Source: Pseudomonas sp. WJP1 (lineage in GTDB: Bacteria > Pseudomonadota > Gammaproteobacteria > Pseudomonadales > Pseudomonadaceae). Taken from it: a stretch of DNA of 64,000 nucleotides. The translations under genes were made by a program, and so were the position numbers. This document shows, piece by piece, positions 6,915-50,969 of the stretch. The stretch spans positions 4,452,501-4,516,500 of the forward strand of contig NZ_CP110128.1 in assembly GCF_028471945.1 (NCBI RefSeq). The letters are read 5' to 3'. A model generated the notes under the pieces. It did no database searches and was not told the origin of the DNA. It worked only from the letters and a program-made list of their open reading frames with translations. The first letter of the stretch is position 1, and every line of letters starts with the position of its first letter.

Positions 6915-7052
6915 AAGTTCACATCAATTTTTTTGCCCCCTCACACCCTGAGCCTGTCCGTCAACTTCTGACGACCTCCTTCGGAGCCTCTAGCAACGTT
7001 GATCCATGCCGCGTCAAAGTCTGTGGGAGATGTTGTGTGGGAGATTGTTATC

Positions 7053-7791
7053 TGAGTACATATCCATTGCTGCGGTAACGACCACTTATGGTTTCGCCCT
7101 TACGGCGACTCACTTTTCCAAACGCCGAAAAGTAAGCAAAAGGCTTTGCCCCACCACTTGGTGCCTCGCTTAGGCTCGGCATGCCCTCACTCCGGCATTG
7201 CTCCGTGGGTCGCCGCGATGGGCCATCCATGGCCCAGCGCGGCTAAACCGGCGTCCTGCCGGTTTCCCCACTGCGCAATGCCTGCGTTCGGCCAGCATGG
7301 TTAACGGGGCACCCAAATCCAAAGCAAAGCGAGGCGGCCTGACAGCCGACCTGACTTTTGCAGATACCCCAATCCCCTGTAGGAGCCAGGCTTGCCGGCG
7401 AAGAACGATAACGCGGTACAACAGACACACCGCAGCGCCTGGTTCGCCGGCAAGCCTGGCTCCTACAAGGGAATTGCGTACGGCTCCCGATCAGGTCGGC
7501 TGTCAGGCCGCCTCGCTTTGCTTTGGCTTTTGATTTTCTTGCCCCCTCGAGAGGCCGAGTGGAGGTTCTGCGCAGTGGGTAAACCGGCATGGATGCCGGT
7601 TTAGCCGCGCTGGGCCATGGATGGCCCATCGCGGCGACCCACGGAGCAGGACCGGAGCGAGGGTACCCCGAGCCCCAGCGAGGGGCCGAACGCCAGGGGC
7701 AAGAGCCCTTGGTTACTTGGGGCTCTTCCAAGTGACTCGCCGTAAGGGCGAAACCATAGGTGGCCGTTACCGCAGGAATGGATATGTACAC
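7053..7791. repeat. Composite inverted repeat R1 (~740 bp), IS-free
   Basis: First of four copies of a long element. It begins GAGTACATATCCATTGCTGC and ends with the inverse (GCAGGAATGGATATGTAC). The left arm (type A, with CACTTTTCCAAACGCC) and right arm (type B, inverted, with the GGGCTCTTCCAAGTGACTC version) share a core around GGCCATCCATGGCCCAGCGC. The centre (7379-7467) is an inverted REP pair. Both arms carry CGCCCTTA / TAAGGGCG where the IS-bearing copies carry CGCTCTTA. The open frames across it look like by-products of the repeat. Upstream flank 6998-7015 is also shared with R2. No gene is seen between 6774 and 7959. Confidence 0.85.
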
Positions 7792-13128: not shown

Positions 13129-13354
13129 ACCGCCACCGACTGGTGCACCCGGGTGCACGTGGCGCTTTATAAAAGTGCAGACAGCGGATGCGGCGCCGTT
13201 CTTTGGCACCGACGTTCGATGGTCTCCCCTCGCCCCAGAACCGCACAAAACTGCGGTTTTCACCCGGTAAAGCCGTGCCCCCACCTGTGTATTGGCTTCG
13301 ATCACGACCTCAAGCGCATTTCTGGCGCGTGACTTGCTAGTAACACCTCAACCC

Positions 13355-13398
13355 TGCAGTCAACGCTGATTGCATGCATACGACAAAGGCGCCGTGTG
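13355..13398 (+). promoter_or_regulatory. Two-hairpin ANTAR-type antitermination motif (NasT/NasR target)
   Basis: Two stem-loops with six-base loops lie in tandem. P1 is TGCAGTC, loop AACGCT, GATTGCA (13355-13374). P2 is CATACGAC, loop AAAGGC, GCCGTGTG (13377-13398) with one mismatch. Both loops have A at position 1 and G at position 4, the signature bound by ANTAR-domain antiterminators such as NasR/NasT. The P2 loop and 3' arm overlap the 5' arm of the following terminator (13385-13393), so P2 formation and termination are mutually exclusive. The placement before an assimilatory nitrate reductase gene fits known nas control. Confidence 0.8.
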
Positions 13399-17580: not shown

Positions 17581-17731
17581 GTGGTTGGTGGGAGTCGGTG
17601 ACAGCCGAGTTGCCGGCGATGGTGGCCTTGAGCGTTGCGTTGGTTGATCCATGCCGCGTCGAAGCTTGTGGGAGATTGTTCTGAGTACATATCCATTGCT
17701 GCGGTAACGGCCACCTATGGTTTCGCTCTTA

Positions 17732-17986
17732 TGTATGGACTCGCCCCCACTGGCCACCTGTTTTTCAAACACTGCTACCCGGTTGCATCTATGTATAAGG
17801 CCTGTTCGAGGAAGCCCTGTCTGCGGCTTCTGGCCGACATTGGTTGAGCTCGCGGTATGCCGATTACATGCAGGCCTCGAAGGCCGGTAAGAGCGCAGGC
17901 ATCGATCCGCGACGGTCTGACCTGGGGTCAATGTTTTCTAGCAGGGGCTGAAGCGCCGTGGCGCCCCGGTGGCAGAACGCTTATGT
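17732..17986 (-). ncRNA. Candidate seekRNA/bridge RNA region of IS copy A
   Basis: The 255 bp between the transposase stop and the nearby IS end is non-coding, and this is where IS1111-type elements encode their guide RNA. On the transposase strand it contains CGCTCTTA (17895-17888), which reproduces the eight bases directly flanking the insertion at 17724-17731. The transcript was not observed; boundaries are those of the non-coding region. Confidence 0.55.
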
Positions 17987-19090
17987 TCAGTGACTTGGCG
18001 CAGCTGGCCGGCCATGGGCCGGTTGGCTGCGGTAAGTCTGCTCATTTTGTAGCAGCACCCAAATGATTCGCAGGTTGCGGTTCGCCAAGCGTATCGCCGC
18101 TTCCTTGCGCCCCAGCCGGGCCTGCCACCGTTGCAGGCGACGATCGTCGGGCTGCTCCGAATCCGCGCGCAAATGCCTCAATACCGCGTGAGCGCCTTGA
18201 ACCATCAGGCTGCGCACATAGCTGTCGCCGCGTTTGCTTATCCGGCCCAGGCGAATTTTCTGCCCACTGCTTTTCTGCTCAGGCACCATGCCGAAGTAGG
18301 CGGCGAACTGGCGTGCATTGGCGAAGCGCTCAGGGTCGGTCTGCTTGGCCAAAAGCGCAGTGGCGATGATCGGGCCGATCCCGCGCACGGTCATCAGCCG
18401 CCGGGCCGTTTTGTCCTCGTTCGCGGCCTTCTCCAGGCGACCGGTCAGGACGTTGACCCGTTCGCCCAGTTGGCGCCATTCGCCCAGCAGCTCGTCGATC
18501 AGTTCACGCAACATCTCCGGCAACGGTTGGGTGGCGTCTTCGAGCACCCGAGGCAGGGTCTGGTTGATCGCCGCATCACCCTGAGCCAGGACAACGCCAT
18601 GCTCCATCAGCAAACCGCGCATCTGGTTACTCATGGCTGTGCGCCGACGGACATAACCCTGGCGGGCCCGGTGCAAGGCCTGCATGGCCAGCGCGGTGGC
18701 GCTTTTGATGGGGACCGCGGCAATTTTGCTGTCCCGTCCCGCACGCAATATGGCCAGTGCATCATTTCGATCATTTTTGGCGCCGCTGCGGTGCTGGGCC
18801 ACCAGCTGTGCCGGAAGAATCCGCGCCAGATTGCCCTGAGCCTGTAGCTGGCGCGCCCATGCTTGAGCGCCTGGACCTGTTTCCACCAGCACTACTACGC
18901 TTGGCGGCAGTTGGCGCAGAAAGGCGTGAAAGGCTTCACGCGACTTGATACGTTCTTCGTAAAGCACCTGGCCAAGGGCGTCTTCGCCAGCCACCTGAAA
19001 GACCTGCTTGGCCAGATCGACCGCCACTGTCGTGCAGGCCGACAGATCGCTGGAAGACAAAGACTGTTTAACCGTCGTATGCTTTTTCAT
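17987..19090 (-). CDS. IS110-family DEDD transposase, copy A
   Basis: A 367-residue transposase. The N-terminal RuvC-like DEDD domain shows Asp25 (AVDLAKQVF), Glu70 (LVETGPGA), Asp107 and Asp110 (KNDRNDALAI). The C-terminal Transposase_20 domain contains TVRGIGPIIATALLA and FAAYFGMVPEQKSSGQK with the conserved serine region. It is full length and intact. It differs from copies B and C at a few residues (Gln versus Leu in SEQPDDR; Ile versus Val in LRIIWVL). GCGAGGGCG precedes the ATG. It recombines IS ends with a target chosen by an element-encoded RNA in this family. Confidence 0.95.
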   Translation of the reverse strand: MKKHTTVKQSLSSSDLSACTTVAVDLAKQVFQVAGEDALGQVLYEERIKSREAFHAFLRQLPPSVVVLVETGPGAQAWARQLQAQGNLARILPAQLVAQHRSGAKNDRNDALAILRAGRDSKIAAVPIKSATALAMQALHRARQGYVRRRTAMSNQMRGLLMEHGVVLAQGDAAINQTLPRVLEDATQPLPEMLRELIDELLGEWRQLGERVNVLTGRLEKAANEDKTARRLMTVRGIGPIIATALLAKQTDPERFANARQFAAYFGMVPEQKSSGQKIRLGRISKRGDSYVRSLMVQGAHAVLRHLRADSEQPDDRRLQRWQARLGRKEAAIRLANRNLRIIWVLLQNEQTYRSQPAHGRPAAPSH

Positions 19091-19965
19091 GGATTCGCCC
19101 TCGCTGTCGGTGGCTTCTTAGACTGCCCCCGTGGCGCATTGACGCCTCGGCGCGGGCGAGTCCATCCAATTACAGCGACTCCCTTTTTCAAACGCCAAAA
19201 AGGAAGCAAAAGGCTTTGCCCCACCACTCGGTGCCTCGCCTAGGCTCGGCATGCCCTCACTCCGGCATTGCTCCGTGGGTCGCCGCGATGGGCCATCCCT
19301 GGCCCAGCGCGGCTAAACCGGCGTCCTGCCGGTTTCCCCACTGCGCAATGCCTGCGTTCGGCCATCGTGGTTAACGGGGCACCCAGATCAAAAACAAAAG
19401 CGAGGCGGCCTTAAAGCCGACCTGACTTTTACGGATGTACCTGATTTCCTGTAGGAGCCAGGCTTGCCGGCGAACCAGGCGCTGCGGTGTGTCTGTTACA
19501 CCGCGTTATCGTTCTTCGCCGGCAAGCCTGGCTCCTACAGGGGAAACGCGTACGGCTCCCGATCAGGTCGGCTTTAAGGCCGCCTCGCGCGCTTTTGATC
19601 TGCTTTGGCTTTTGATTTTCTTGCCCCCTCGAGAGGCCGAGTGGAGGTTCTGCGCAGTGGGTAAACCGGCAAGGATGCCGGTTTAGCTGCGCTGGGCCAA
19701 GGATGGCCCATCGCGGCGACCCACGGAGCAGGACCGGAGCGAGGGTATGCCGAGCCTTAGCGAGGCACCGAACGCCAGGGGCAAGAGCCCTTGGTTACTT
19801 GGGGCTCTTCCAAGTGACTCGCTGTAAGAGCGAAACCCTAAGTGGCCGTTACCGCAGGAATGGATATGTACGCGGTCAACAAACAATAGATCGGCTGTCA
19901 GGCCGCCTTCGCCGGCAAGCCTGGCTCCTACAAGGGTTTCATTCGTCGCGAGGGTGGAATGGCAA

Positions 19966-34384: not shown

Positions 34385-35134
34385 TGAGTACATATCCATT
34401 CCTGCGGTAACGGCCACCTATGGTTTCGCCCTTACGGCGAGTCACTTGGAAGAGCCCCAAGTAACCAAGGGCTCTTGCCCCCGGCGTTCGGTGCCTCGCT
34501 AAGGCTCGGCATGCCCTCGCTCCGGTCCTGCTCCGTGGGCCCGCCGCGATGGGCCATCCATGGCCCAGCGCGGCTAAACCGGCATCCTTGCCGGTTTACC
34601 CACTGCGCAGAACCTCCACTCGGCCTCTCGATGGGGCAAGAAAATCAAAAGCCAGATCAAGATCAAACGCAAAAGCGAGGCGGCCTGACAGCCGACCTGA
34701 TCGGGAGCCGTACGCGTTCCCCTGTAGGAGCCAGGCTTGCCGGCGAATCAGACGCTGCGGTGTGTCTGTTGTACCGCGTTATCGTTCTTCGCCGGCAAGC
34801 CTGGCTACAAGGGATTGGGGTATCTGAAAAGATCAGGTCGGCTGTCAGGCCGCCTCGCTTTTGTTTTTGATCTGGGTGCCCCGTTAACCACGATGGCCGA
34901 ACGCAGGCATTGCGCAGTGGGGAAACCGGCAGGACGCCGGTTTAGCCGCGCTGGGCCAGGGACGGCCCATCGCGGCGACCCACGGAGCAATGCCGGAGTG
35001 AGGGCATGCCGAGCCACAGCGAGGCACCGAGTGGTGGGGCAAAGCCTTTTGCTTCCTTTTTGGCGTTTGAAAAAGGGAGTCGCCGTAAGGGCGAAACCAT
35101 AGGAGGCCGTTACCGCAGCAATGGATATGTACTC
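34385..35134. repeat. Composite inverted repeat R3 (~750 bp), IS-free, opposite orientation
   Basis: Same element as R1/R2 but with arm B on the left and arm A inverted on the right. Termini are GAGTACATATCCATTCCTGC and GCAGCAATGGATATGTAC. The central REP pair (34723-34808) has lost two bases in its 3' half (CTGGCTACAAG). Both arms carry CGCCCTTA / TAAGGGCG at the position used by the IS in R2 and R4, and both are empty. No gene is supported between 34309 and 35294. Confidence 0.85.
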
Positions 35135-35172
35135 AGACAACAACCTCCCACAGCCGCACCGAACAAAAAAAA

Positions 35173-47110: not shown

Positions 47111-47271
47111 GGCCCAGCGATAGGGGCTGGCAGCCGACCAATTGCTCGCGGCTGTACCCGATCTACTGTAGGAGCCCGGCTTGCCGGCGAAGGCGTCCTG
47201 ACATTCGATGATTGTCTTTCAGGAGTACATATCCGTTCCTGCGGTAACGGCTGCTTATGGTTTCGCTCTTA

Positions 47272-47526
47272 TGTATGGACTCGCCCCCACTGGCCACCTG
47301 TTTTTCAAACACTGCTACCCGGTTGCATCTATGTATAAGGCCTGTTCGAGGAAGCCCTGTCTGCGGCTTCTGGCCGACATTGGTTGAGCTCGCGGTATGC
47401 CGATTACATGCAGGCCTCGAAGGCCGGTAAGAGCGCAGGCATCGATCCGCGACGGTCTGACCTGGGGTCAATGTTTTCTAGCAGGGGCTGAAGCGCCGTG
47501 GCGCCCCGGTGGCAGAACGCTTATGT
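47272..47526 (-). ncRNA. Candidate seekRNA/bridge RNA region of IS copy B
   Basis: Non-coding 255 bp beyond the transposase stop. On the transposase strand it carries CGCTCTTA (47435-47428), reproducing flank 47264-47271. Interpretation as for copy A. Confidence 0.55.
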
Positions 47527-48630
47527 TCAGTGACTTGGCGCAGCTGGCCGGCCATGGGCCGGTTGGCTGCGGTAAGTCTGCTCATTTTGTAGCAGCACCC
47601 AAACGATTCGCAGGTTGCGGTTCGCCAAGCGTATCGCCGCTTCCTTGCGCCCCAGCCGGGCCTGCCACCGTTGCAAGCGACGATCGTCGGGCAGCTCCGA
47701 ATCCGCGCGCAAATGCCTCAATACCGCGTGAGCGCCTTGAACCATCAGGCTGCGCACATAGCTGTCGCCGCGTTTGCTTATCCGGCCCAGGCGAATTTTC
47801 TGCCCACTGCTTTTCTGCTCAGGCACCATGCCGAAGTAGGCGGCGAACTGGCGTGCATTGGCGAAGCGCTCAGGGTCGGTCTGCTTGGCCAAAAGCGCAG
47901 TGGCGATGATCGGGCCGATCCCGCGCACGGTCATCAGCCGCCGGGCCGTTTTGTCCTCGTTCGCGGCCTTCTCCAGGCGACCGGTCAGGACGTTGACCCG
48001 TTCGCCCAGTTGGCGCCATTCGCCCAGCAGCTCGTCGATCAGTTCACGCAACATCTCCGGCAACGGTTGGGTGGCGTCTTCGAGCACCCGAGGCAGGGTC
48101 TGGTTGATCGCCGCATCACCCTGAGCCAGGACAACGCCATGCTCCATCAGCAAACCGCGCATCTGGTTACTCATGGCTGTGCGCCGACGGACATAACCCT
48201 GGCGGGCCCGGTGCAAGGCCTGCATGGCCAGCGCGGTGGCGCTTTTGATGGGGACCGCGGCAATTTTGCTGTCCCGTCCCGCACGCAATATGGCCAGTGC
48301 ATCATTTCGATCATTTTTGGCGCCGCTGCGGTGCTGGGCCACCAGCTGTGCCGGAAGAATCCGCGCCAGATTGCCCTGAGCCTGTAGCTGGCGCGCCCAT
48401 GCTTGAGCGCCTGGACCTGTTTCCACCAGCACTACTACGCTTGGCGGCAGTTGGCGCAGAAAGGCGTGAAAGGCTTCACGCGACTTGATACGTTCTTCGT
48501 AAAGCACCTGGCCAAGGGCGTCTTCGCCTGCCACCTGAAAGACCTGCTTGGCCAAATCGACCGCCACTGTCGTGCAGGCCGACAGATCGCTGGAAGACAA
48601 AGACTGTTTAACCGTCGTATGCTTTTTCAT
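47527..48630 (-). CDS. IS110-family DEDD transposase, copy B
   Basis: A 367-residue intact transposase with the same catalytic residues as copy A (Asp25, Glu70, Asp107, Asp110). It differs from copy C only at residue 65 (Val here, Ile there), while copy A differs from both at SELPDDR and LRIVWVL. It is therefore closer to its inverted neighbour in R4. Confidence 0.95.
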   Translation of the reverse strand: MKKHTTVKQSLSSSDLSACTTVAVDLAKQVFQVAGEDALGQVLYEERIKSREAFHAFLRQLPPSVVVLVETGPGAQAWARQLQAQGNLARILPAQLVAQHRSGAKNDRNDALAILRAGRDSKIAAVPIKSATALAMQALHRARQGYVRRRTAMSNQMRGLLMEHGVVLAQGDAAINQTLPRVLEDATQPLPEMLRELIDELLGEWRQLGERVNVLTGRLEKAANEDKTARRLMTVRGIGPIIATALLAKQTDPERFANARQFAAYFGMVPEQKSSGQKIRLGRISKRGDSYVRSLMVQGAHAVLRHLRADSELPDDRRLQRWQARLGRKEAAIRLANRNLRIVWVLLQNEQTYRSQPAHGRPAAPSH

Positions 48631-49451
48631 GGATTCGCCCTCGCTGTCGGTGGCTTCTTAGACTGCCCCCGTGGCGCATTGACGCCTCGGCGCGGGCGAG
48701 TCCATCCAATTACAGCGAGTCACTTGGAAGAGCCCCAAGTAACCAAGGGCTCTTGCCCCTGGCGTTCGGTGCCTCGCTAAGGCTCGGCATACCCTCGCTC
48801 CGGTCCTGCTCCGTGGGTCGCCGCGATGGGCCATCCATGGCCCAGCGCGGCTAAACCGGCATCCTTGCCGGTTTACCCACTGCGCAGAACCTCCACTCGG
48901 CCTCTCGATGGGGCAAGAAAATCAAAAGCCAGATCAAGATCAAACGCAAAAGCGAGGCGGCCTTAAAGCCGACCTGATCGGGAGCCGTACGCAATTCCCT
49001 GTAGGAGCCAGGCTTGCCGGCGAAGAACGATAACGCGGTACAACAGATACACCGCGGCGCCTGGTTCGCCGGCAAGCCTGGCTCCTACAGGGGATTTGAG
49101 GGGTGTCTGGAAAAGATCAGGTCGGCTTTAAGGCCGCCTCGCTTTTGTTTTTGATCTGGGTGCCCCGTTAACCACGATGGCCGAACGCAGGCATTGCGCA
49201 GTGGGGAAACCGGCAGGACGCCGGTTTAGCCGCGCTGGGCCAGGGATGGCCCATCGCGGCGACCCACGGAGCAATGCCGGAGTGAGGGCATGCCGAGCCT
49301 AAGCGAGGCACCGAGTGGTGGGGCAAAGCCTTTTGCTTACTTTTTGGCGTTTGAAAAAGTGAGTCGCTGTAATTGGATGGACTCGCCCGCGCCGAGGCGT
49401 CAATGCGCCACGGGGGCAGTCTAAGAAGCCACCGACAGCGAGGGCGAATCC

Positions 49452-50555
49452 ATGAAAAAGCATACGACGGTTAAACAGTCTTTGTCTTCCAGCGATCTGT
49501 CGGCCTGCACGACAGTGGCGGTCGATTTGGCCAAGCAGGTCTTTCAGGTGGCAGGCGAAGACGCTCTTGGCCAAGTGCTTTACGAAGAACGCATCAAGTC
49601 GCGTGAAGCCTTTCATGCCTTTCTGCGCCAACTGCCGCCAAGCATAGTAGTGCTCGTGGAAACAGGTCCAGGCGCTCAAGCATGGGCGCGCCAACTACAG
49701 GCCCAGGGCAATCTGGCGCGGATTCTTCCGGCACAGCTTGTGGCCCAGCACCGCAGCGGCGCCAAAAATGATCGAAATGATGCACTGGCCATATTGCGTG
49801 CCGGGCGCGACAGCAAAATTGCCGCGGTCCCCATCAAAAGCGCCACCGCACTGGCCATGCAGGCCTTGCACCGGGCCCGCCAGGGTTATGTCCGTCGGCG
49901 CACAGCCATGAGTAACCAGATGCGCGGTTTGCTGATGGAGCATGGCGTTGTCCTGGCACAGGGTGATGCGGCGATCAACCAGACCCTGCCTCGGGTGCTG
50001 GAAGATGCCACTCAACCGTTGCCGGAGATGTTGCGTGAACTGATCGACGAGCTGCTGGGTGAGTGGCGCCAACTGGGCGAACGGGTCAACGTCCTGACCG
50101 GTCGCCTGGAGAAGGCCGCGAACGAGGACAAAACGGCCCGACGGCTGATGACCGTGCGCGGGATCGGCCCGATCATCGCCACTGCGCTTTTGGCCAAGCA
50201 GACCGACCCTGAGCGCTTCGCCAATGCACGCCAGTTCGCCGCCTACTTCGGCATGGTGCCTGAGCAGAAAAGCAGTGGGCAGAAAATTCGCCTGGGCCGG
50301 ATAAGCAAACGCGGCGACAGCTATGTGCGCAGCCTGATGGTTCAAGGCGCTCACGCGGTATTGAGGCATTTGCGCGCGGATTCGGAGCTGCCCGACGATC
50401 GTCGCTTGCAACGGTGGCAGGCCCGGCTGGGGCGCAAGGAAGCGGCGATACGCTTGGCGAACCGCAACCTGCGAATCGTTTGGGTGCTGCTACAAAATGA
50501 GCAGACTTACCGCAGCCAACCGGCCCATGGCCGGCCAGCTGCGCCAAGTCACTGA
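49452..50555 (+). CDS. IS110-family DEDD transposase, copy C
   Basis: A 367-residue intact transposase, identical to copy B apart from Ile65. Catalytic Asp25, Glu70, Asp107 and Asp110 are kept, as is the C-terminal FAAYFGMVPEQKSSGQK block. GCGAGGGCG is before the ATG. Confidence 0.95.
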   Translation: MKKHTTVKQSLSSSDLSACTTVAVDLAKQVFQVAGEDALGQVLYEERIKSREAFHAFLRQLPPSIVVLVETGPGAQAWARQLQAQGNLARILPAQLVAQHRSGAKNDRNDALAILRAGRDSKIAAVPIKSATALAMQALHRARQGYVRRRTAMSNQMRGLLMEHGVVLAQGDAAINQTLPRVLEDATQPLPEMLRELIDELLGEWRQLGERVNVLTGRLEKAANEDKTARRLMTVRGIGPIIATALLAKQTDPERFANARQFAAYFGMVPEQKSSGQKIRLGRISKRGDSYVRSLMVQGAHAVLRHLRADSELPDDRRLQRWQARLGRKEAAIRLANRNLRIVWVLLQNEQTYRSQPAHGRPAAPSH

Positions 50556-50810
50556 ACATAAGCGTTCTGCCACCGGGGCGCCACGGCGCTTCAGCCCCTG
50601 CTAGAAAACATTGACCCCAGGTCAGACCGTCGCGGATCGATGCCTGCGCTCTTACCGGCCTTCGAGGCCTGCATGTAATCGGCATACCGCGAGCTCAACC
50701 AATGTCGGCCAGAAGCCGCAGACAGGGCTTCCTCGAACAGGCCTTATACATAGATGCAACCGGGTAGCAGTGTTTGAAAAACAGGTGGCCAGTGGGGGCG
50801 AGTCCATACA
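50556..50810 (+). ncRNA. Candidate seekRNA/bridge RNA region of IS copy C
   Basis: The 255 bp between the transposase stop and IS end. CGCTCTTA (50647-50654) is the exact complement of the right flank TAAGAGCG (50811-50818) and is followed by a GGCC-TTCGA-GGCC hairpin (50657-50669). Shorter stretches ATGTA (50673-50677), GCGAG (50689-50693) and CCAAT (50699-50703) match the right IS junction, the left flank (4-5 nt) and the left IS end respectively, but are short enough to be chance. Confidence 0.6.
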
Positions 50811-50969
50811 TAAGAGCGAAACCATAGGTGGCCGTTACCGCAGCAATGGATATGTACGCAGTCAACAAAGCATGGGTCGGCTGTCAGGCCGCCTTCGCGG
50901 GCAAGCCTCGCTCCTACAGTTTTTATCACCATCCGACCAGAAACTCCTATTCGGCTATTGCGCATCCGG

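What the first reader, a model, noticed from the sequence alone, without database searches (positions are those of the whole stretch)
50556..50818. IS110/IS1111-type element carries an 8-nt guide candidate complementary to its own insertion flank
The three IS copies have 255 bp of non-coding DNA after the transposase, subterminal repeats and no target duplication, as in the IS1111 subgroup whose members use an element-encoded guide RNA (seekRNA/bridge RNA). In copy C the segment CGCTCTTA (50647-50654) is the exact complement of the right flank TAAGAGCG (50811-50818), and it is preceded by no gene and followed by a tight hairpin. The same relation holds in copies A (17888-17895 versus 17724-17731) and B (47428-47435 versus 47264-47271). 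Shorter matches to the other flank and to the IS ends occur nearby. The element would therefore read out its target in these repeats by RNA.
Basis: partly seen in the sequence, partly recalled or inferred. Interest (0 to 1): 0.78.

Follow-up and report, generated by a model that had tools for sequence, protein, structure and literature searches.

The report
Jumping gene with 8-letter RNA address
This bacterial jumping gene carries a short stretch of eight letters, probably read out as RNA, that matches the place where it sits; its relatives carry different stretches that match their own landing places, so it is a clear natural example of a recently discovered kind of RNA-guided element.

Summary
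The element is IS110/IS1111-type, 49370-50810, 1441 bp. Its transposase gene is followed by a 255-bp non-coding right end containing CGCTCTTA (50647-50654), the exact complement of the right flank. The host genome has 12 full copies at independent places: 11 flanked by TG|TAAGAGCG, one by TG|TAAAAGCG. Among 70 rows distinct in genome and flank letters (9 guides), guide and own flank match 8/8 in 66 and 7/8 in 4; the ninth base matches in 1 of 70. In the host, 11 of 25 perfect YGTAAGAGCG sites are occupied, against 0 of 600 YGTAGGAGCG and 0 of 112 CGCCGTAAGGGCG sites, each one G·U wobble away on the guided side. The RNA-guide reading is strongly supported by sequence comparison; transcription and catalysis remain inferred. 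The kind is known (seekRNA, bridge RNA). New here are the member, its repeat target, a guide one base away from those of close relatives at TAGGAGCG sites, and nearly one-sided recognition: 8 nt on the right, only an invariant G on the left.

The parts
49370..50810 (+). IS copy C, 1441 bp, complete element (7-bp left extension TAATTGG, 3-bp right extension ACA)
   Evidence: empty-site comparison and sTIR
17732..19172 (-). IS copy A
   Evidence: 98% identical, 1441 bp
47272..48712 (-). IS copy B, inserted at the other end of the same composite repeat as copy C
   Evidence: 99% identical, 1441 bp
49452..50555 (+). transposase, 367 aa; DEDD_Tnp_IS110 + Transposase_20; GMVPEQKSSG motif at aa 267-276
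50610..50763 (+). guide-RNA (seekRNA/bridge-RNA) region as aligned here; true RNA ends unknown
   Evidence: alignment of 16 relatives and consensus fold; covariance model: 12 matches in the host, all in the IS copies (150 of 2675 first-look candidates scored)
50647..50654 (+). target guide CGCTCTTA, complementary to the top strand of the right flank TAAGAGCG
   Evidence: 66 of 70 rows exact; scan peak at alignment column 38
50657..50669 (+). terminal hairpin GGCCTTCGAGGCC of the target loop
   Evidence: helix 4, columns 48-61, one pair with a change on both sides
50671..50680 (+). candidate second (bottom-strand) guide GCATGTAATC; shares TGTAA with left flank plus core
   Evidence: GTAAT invariant in 16 of 16 aligned RNAs; no covariation at -2
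50699..50704 (+). candidate donor guide CCAATG; CCAAT is complementary to ATTGG of the left IS extension
   Evidence: weak covariation with the left extension, 2 of 2000 permutations reach it
50746..50752 (+). candidate second donor guide ATACATA, same letters as the right IS end plus core, ATACA|TA
   Evidence: direct reading; the region differs in L058 and L059, whose right end is ATA
50811..50818 (+). right target flank TAAGAGCG (outside the IS)
49360..49369 (+). left target flank TGAGTCGCTG (outside the IS)
19820..19832 (+). intact perfect target CGCTGTAAGAGCG without IS (empty site in the window)

Best explanation
This is a transposon of the IS1111 group of the IS110 family. The non-coding right end after the transposase gene encodes a guide RNA. 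An 8-nt segment in its first loop (CGCUCUUA) pairs with the top strand of the target, core TA plus six bases to its right. A short segment across the loop (GUAAU) covers the core and an invariant G to the left. A second loop probably pairs with the IS ends in the excised circle. The RNA-bound DEDD transposase recombines circle and target at TG|TA. Shown by sequence: ends, target, guide-target covariation, conserved RNA fold, and sharp discrimination between sites in the host genome. Inferred: that the RNA is made and bound, that it pairs during recombination, and the donor-loop role.
For: 70 rows distinct in genome and flank letters: 66 match 8/8 and 4 match 7/8; per-position matches 70, 70, 70, 68, 70, 69, 70, 69, then 1 of 70 at position nine, so the guide has a sharp 8-nt edge. 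One locus missed by the reading rule (L199) also matches 8/8 on inspection. Scan for complementarity to the right flank: of 111 RNA windows column 38 stands out, 7.94 of 8 with own flank versus 6.01 with others, 0 of 2000 permutations; the next difference is 0.29. One row per genome and guide, n=19: 7.947 versus 6.181, 0 of 100,000. Host genome: 11 of 25 perfect YGTAAGAGCG sites occupied, 0 of 600 YGTAGGAGCG, 0 of 112 CGCCGTAAGGGCG (Fisher p about 3e-17 for 11/25 against 0/600). Outer flanks of the 12 copies show no match at E 1e-10 except for neighbours B and C. RNA fold: 98.3% of cells pair and 6 of 30 pairs change on both sides, both 0 of 500 shuffles. Protein: NCBIfam IS110 RNA-guided transposase, 294.7 bits against a cut-off of 140. 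Joining the IS ends gives a CATAAT/TATAAT box with a -35-like box at 17-18 bp in 13 of 13 elements examined, with no chance control.
Against: No RNA data for this element. The single sequence does not fold better than shuffles (z 0.02) and its minimum-energy fold differs from the consensus fold. The left guide hardly covaries: -2 is T in 51 of the 62 insertions where it can be read, also where the RNA has C. The donor-guide signal is weak and many elements match only in part. In the same-letter orientation of the scan a window overlapping the guide (columns 34-41) also reached 0 of 2000 permutations, with a small effect (2.81 versus 2.31), and the left-flank scan gave only weak peaks elsewhere. 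The four 7/8 rows show that the guide is not absolute. In this element the -35-like box at the joined ends is poor (TGGCCA) and the circle scores only one letter above the integrated form.
Confidence: 0.94

Rival explanations
1. The transposase alone recognises the target hairpin (TCGCY-GTAAG-RGCGA, insertion in the loop), without RNA.
For: All 12 full host copies sit in the loop of such a hairpin, and several other IS elements target palindromic repeats (PMC1525189, passages).
Against: 112 CGCCGTAAGGGCG sites, whose hairpin is predicted to be more stable (-8.5 versus -6.4 kcal/mol, RNA parameters), are not occupied by any of the 12 copies. Relatives with 72-82% identical transposases insert next to, not in the loop of, the palindromes TAGGAGC..., and their flank follows the RNA octamer.
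Confidence: 0.03
2. The copies spread by duplication or recombination of the host repeat together with its IS, so the shared flank is only inheritance.
For: The IS copies are 98-100% identical and the target repeats recur: 133 sites with up to 2 mismatches.
Against: Outer flanks of the 12 copies do not match each other apart from the neighbouring pair B/C; inner flanks belong to different repeat variants; relatives in other genomes show different flanks that follow the guide.
Confidence: 0.02
3. The 8-nt complement is chance or serves only another purpose, for instance regulation like the sRNAs Asr9/Ssr9 of ISPpu9.
For: ISPpu9 makes two sRNAs, of which Ssr9 lies downstream of tnp and can pair with Asr9 (PMC8450116, abstract and one results section).
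Against: Chance is excluded by the covariation in 70 rows. A regulatory role beside the guide role is not excluded, but it does not explain the match to the flank.
Confidence: 0.01

Closest known systems
IS1111-group IS with seekRNA (ISEc11, ISPa11, ISKpn4, ISPst6; PMC11187229)
   Same: sTIR, DEDD transposase with G--P----SG, non-coding region downstream of tnp, segment complementary to the target top strand, repeat as target (ISPa11 in REP), promoter-like sequence at the joined ends
   Different: RNA not shown here; second (bottom-strand) match reduced to core plus one G; target is another repeat; guide differs by one base from guides of close relatives
IS621-type bridge RNA (IS110 group; PMC11208160)
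   Same: target loop then a donor-like loop in one RNA region, core dinucleotide, guide-target covariation
   Different: RNA region downstream, not upstream, of tnp; long right and very short left target guide; long sTIR
ISPpu9 / ISPpu10 of P. putida KT2440 (PMC8450116, PMC1525189)
   Same: IS110-family IS inserted at a fixed point of a repeat; ISPpu9 has an sRNA (Ssr9) downstream of tnp
   Different: they target REP; their sequences were not compared here and an antisense RNA like Asr9 was not looked for

Membership tests
IS1111 group of IS110 family | DEDD transposase, PF01548 + PF02371, with G--P----S(T)G motif | tested here: met
   PF01548 53.1 bits, PF02371 91.9 bits; NF033542 294.7 bits; GMVPEQKSSG at aa 267. 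The single catalytic residues were not assigned.
IS1111 group of IS110 family | subterminal inverted repeats of sufficient length with a 7-bp left extension | tested here: met
   11-12 bp sTIR, 7-bp left and 3-bp right extensions; the 7-bp rule read in PMC11187229, the 3-bp rule recalled
IS1111 group of IS110 family | longer non-coding region downstream of tnp | tested here: met
   255 bp after tnp, 82 bp before it
IS1111 group of IS110 family | fixed target, no extra duplication | tested here: met
   12 full copies; intact sites in window and genome
seekRNA | segment complementary to the target top strand that changes with the target | tested here: met
   66 of 70 rows at 8/8, 4 at 7/8
seekRNA | second segment complementary to the bottom strand, 3' of the first | tested here: inconclusive
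   GTAAT in the right place; G at -1 in 63 of 63, no covariation at -2
seekRNA | RNA co-purifies with the transposase and is essential | not testable with these tools
   needs experiment
bridge RNA | donor-binding loop matching the IS ends | tested here: inconclusive
   left extension covaries weakly, 2 of 2000 permutations; many partial matches
IS1111 group of IS110 family | circular intermediate with promoter at the joined ends | tested here: inconclusive
   promoter-like sequence at the junction in 13 of 13, no chance control, poor -35 in this element; circles cannot be observed here
ISPpu9-like IS | sequence relation to ISPpu9 and presence of Asr9 | not tested
   no ISPpu9 sequence was fetched

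The most novel reading that the evidence does not exclude
A point mutation in a guide RNA would then act as a natural switch of target family and a cap on copy number.
Probability: 0.45. Interest if true: 0.62.

Novelty: new member of a known kind. Interest (0 to 1): 0.5.

Why it matters
The host genome is a natural specificity assay for an IS1111-type guide: perfect sites, near sites and insertions can all be counted. The counts suggest that 8 nt plus one G set the target and that single G·U wobbles are not used. The relatives give nine guide/target pairs differing by one to five bases, useful for testing how these programmable recombinases read DNA and how they change targets in nature.

Tried and rejected
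Hairpin recognition by protein alone, dispersal with the repeat, chance match and a purely regulatory RNA were considered and rejected or left minor (see rivals). Folding the single RNA gave no excess stability, so the structure rests on the alignment of 16 relatives. A left-flank guide longer than core plus G was looked for and not found. Plasmids: 46 records matched at E 1e-60, all below 60% identity, so the close subfamily was not followed there. The tree of 15 close rows (two of them host copies) plus 5 outgroups left the place of the window element open, so the direction of the guide change is inferred from the eight other guides all having G where this one has A. The target repeat was compared with published Pseudomonas repeat families only by size and number (R200: 320 bp, 47 copies in SBW25; PMC2718517, passages); identity was not tested.

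Rows. The search for relatives scored only a few candidates per genome (5, 7), so copy numbers of other genomes are lower bounds. In one search one extra row (L106) came from a duplicated right end and one (L075, + strand) was a palindromic mis-hit without a guide. One search read one rule over the loci and kept one row per genome and flank letters; of 101 loci checked, 70 gave a row and 31 none. Of those 31, 10 repeat the genome and flank letters of a counted row (L008, L123, L132, L135, L187, L192-L196); 19 lack the right end or the guide part, eight of them because the contig ends 117-133 bases before the right end; one (L202) has a right end without the first RNA loop; one (L199) was missed by the rule and matches 8/8. 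Host copies therefore count 11 in the 70 (10 exact), though there are 12.

Literature: PMC11187229, two of four parts of the results, the targets section and passages; PMC11208160, passages; PMC8450116, abstract and one results section; PMC1525189 and PMC2718517, passages; others only as search listings. In the listings and in what I read of these papers I saw no report of this element or of this one-base guide difference; the library holds open-licence papers only, and the element was not searched by name.

Full report
What is there. The window carries three copies of one insertion sequence (A 17732-19172 -, B 47272-48712 -, C 49370-50810 +), each 1441 bp. The 367-aa transposase has both IS110-family Pfam domains and passes the NCBIfam model 'IS110 family RNA-guided transposase'. 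The ends carry 11-12 bp inverted repeats set 7 bp in on the left and 3 bp in on the right, as in the IS1111 group (PMC11187229, for the 7 bp; the 3 bp recalled). Intact sites show the target as TCGCY-GTAAG-RGCGA, a small hairpin near the ends of a composite inverted repeat, with the insertion at TG|TA. The host is taken for a Pseudomonas: a same-genus genome (G204) has a contig of 11559 bases holding a relative, as does a P. akapageensis record; the species is not known to me.

The observation. CGCTCTTA at 50647-50654 is the exact complement of the right flank TAAGAGCG at 50811-50818, and the same holds for copies A and B. The host genome (7.0 Mb, one contig) has 12 full copies and one 38-bp left-end piece among 40 scored of 71 candidates. 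Eleven full copies have TG|TAAGAGCG, and one has TG|TAAAAGCG, one mismatch to the guide. The 255-bp tails differ at most at one base near the tnp end and never in the guide. Outside the repeats the surroundings of the 12 copies do not match each other, save that B and C are neighbours, so these are independent insertions.

Covariation. Close relatives (67-82% transposase identity) were found in named Pseudomonas, Stutzerimonas and Burkholderiaceae records and in unnamed same-genus genomes. Reading guide and flank by one rule gave 70 rows distinct in genome and flank letters, in 19 genome/guide sets with nine targets: TAAGAGCG, TAGGAGCG, TAGGAGCC, TAGGAGCT, TAGCAGCT, TAGGGTGG, TAGGCTGG, TAGGTTGG and TAGGAGGG. 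Of these rows 66 match 8/8 and 4 match 7/8 (L010, L082, L124, L126); the ninth base matches in 1 of 70. L199, missed by the rule, also matches 8/8. A scan of the 111 gap-free 8-column windows of 16 aligned RNAs for complementarity to the right flank found one peak, at the guide: 7.94 with own flank, 6.01 with others, 0 of 2000 permutations; the next difference was 0.29. In the same-letter orientation a window overlapping the guide gave a small difference (2.81 versus 2.31, also 0 of 2000), and the scans with the left flank gave only weak peaks away from the expected place (best 27 of 2000). With one row per genome and guide (n=19), 0 of 100,000 permutations reached the observed match.

Specificity in the host. 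There are 14 intact YGTAAGAGCG sites (the reversed control pattern gives 24) and 11 occupied ones. There are 600 intact YGTAGGAGCG sites (control 72), mostly REP-like by look (the name REP for these is recalled), and 112 intact CGCCGTAAGGGCG sites. Both classes differ from the guided octamer by one base that would give a U·G wobble; the second also has C at -2, which relatives use less often (8 of 62). None of the 12 copies lies in either class. Fisher's exact test gives about 3e-17 for 11/25 against 0/600. Sites are treated as independent, and loss of insertions by selection is not excluded. Of the 14 intact perfect sites, ten are hairpins of the same repeat, one is the same repeat with CG on the left (L144), two are REP-like (L136, L149) and one is elsewhere (L137).

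Left side. G at -1 is constant in 63 of 63 readable left flanks; T stands at -2 in 51 of the 62 where that base can be read. The RNA base that would read -2 is C in some elements whose flank still has T, so this base is not clearly guided. The target is thus read mainly from one side.

RNA. The consensus fold of 16 relatives puts the guide and GTAAT on opposite sides of an internal loop closed by two stems and capped by a hairpin, followed by a second stem-loop whose flanking single strands resemble the IS ends. Of the cells, 98.3% pair, 6 of 30 pairs have changes on both sides, and no version slid by 1 to 3 columns comes near; the count of further pair types is less striking (14 of 500 shuffles reach it). 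The single sequence alone folds no better than shuffles and differently. A covariance model gives 12 matches in the host, all in the IS copies, with 150 of 2675 candidates scored, so no orphan RNA was seen, and matches in 21 of 397 same-genus genomes under stricter filters. Rfam has no match over the region at gathering score. Joining the IS ends creates a CATAAT or TATAAT box with a -35-like box in 13 of 13 elements, one or two letters better than the integrated form, without a chance control; in this element the -35 is poor (TGGCCA). This is consistent with expression from the circle, no more.

Mechanism and judgement. The best reading is an IS1111-type RNA-guided recombinase, with the right-flank guide shown by comparison and the rest inferred. 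The kind is known from seekRNA and bridge-RNA work. What this case adds is a member whose guide differs by one base (C to T in the DNA) from guides of relatives at TAGGAGCG sites such as L054 and L079, with the effect visible in the site counts. The tree does not settle the direction of that change.

Noticed in passing
window 7036-7789, 19170-19871, 34442-35152, 48710-49372 and 133 target-like sites in the genome: A composite inverted repeat, often with about 570-700 bp between its two target hairpins, occurs many times; its parts score just above gathering for Rfam TwoAYGGAY (5 hits in the window). Possibly the R200 family of P. fluorescens; not tested.
   Followed up: partly
window 47272-50810: Copies B and C occupy both ends of the same composite repeat in opposite orientation, enclosing 657 bp.
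   Followed up: no
target hairpins in the repeats: The hairpin stem mostly keeps pairing: TCGCC/GGCGA, TCGCT/AGCGA and CCGCT/AGCGG all occur, so the repeat itself seems to keep this hairpin; L144 (TCGCC/AGCGA) breaks it.
   Followed up: partly
L106: An IS copy in another same-genus genome has two right ends in a row, 73 bp apart, as after a tandem duplication.
   Followed up: no
L200, L201, L203, L205-L209 (several genomes): Contigs break 117-133 bases before an IS right end, inside the RNA region; multi-copy IS probably split these assemblies, so guides there could not be read.
   Followed up: partly
window 13324-13395: Rfam narK RNA match (52.2 bits, gathering 43.2).
   Followed up: no
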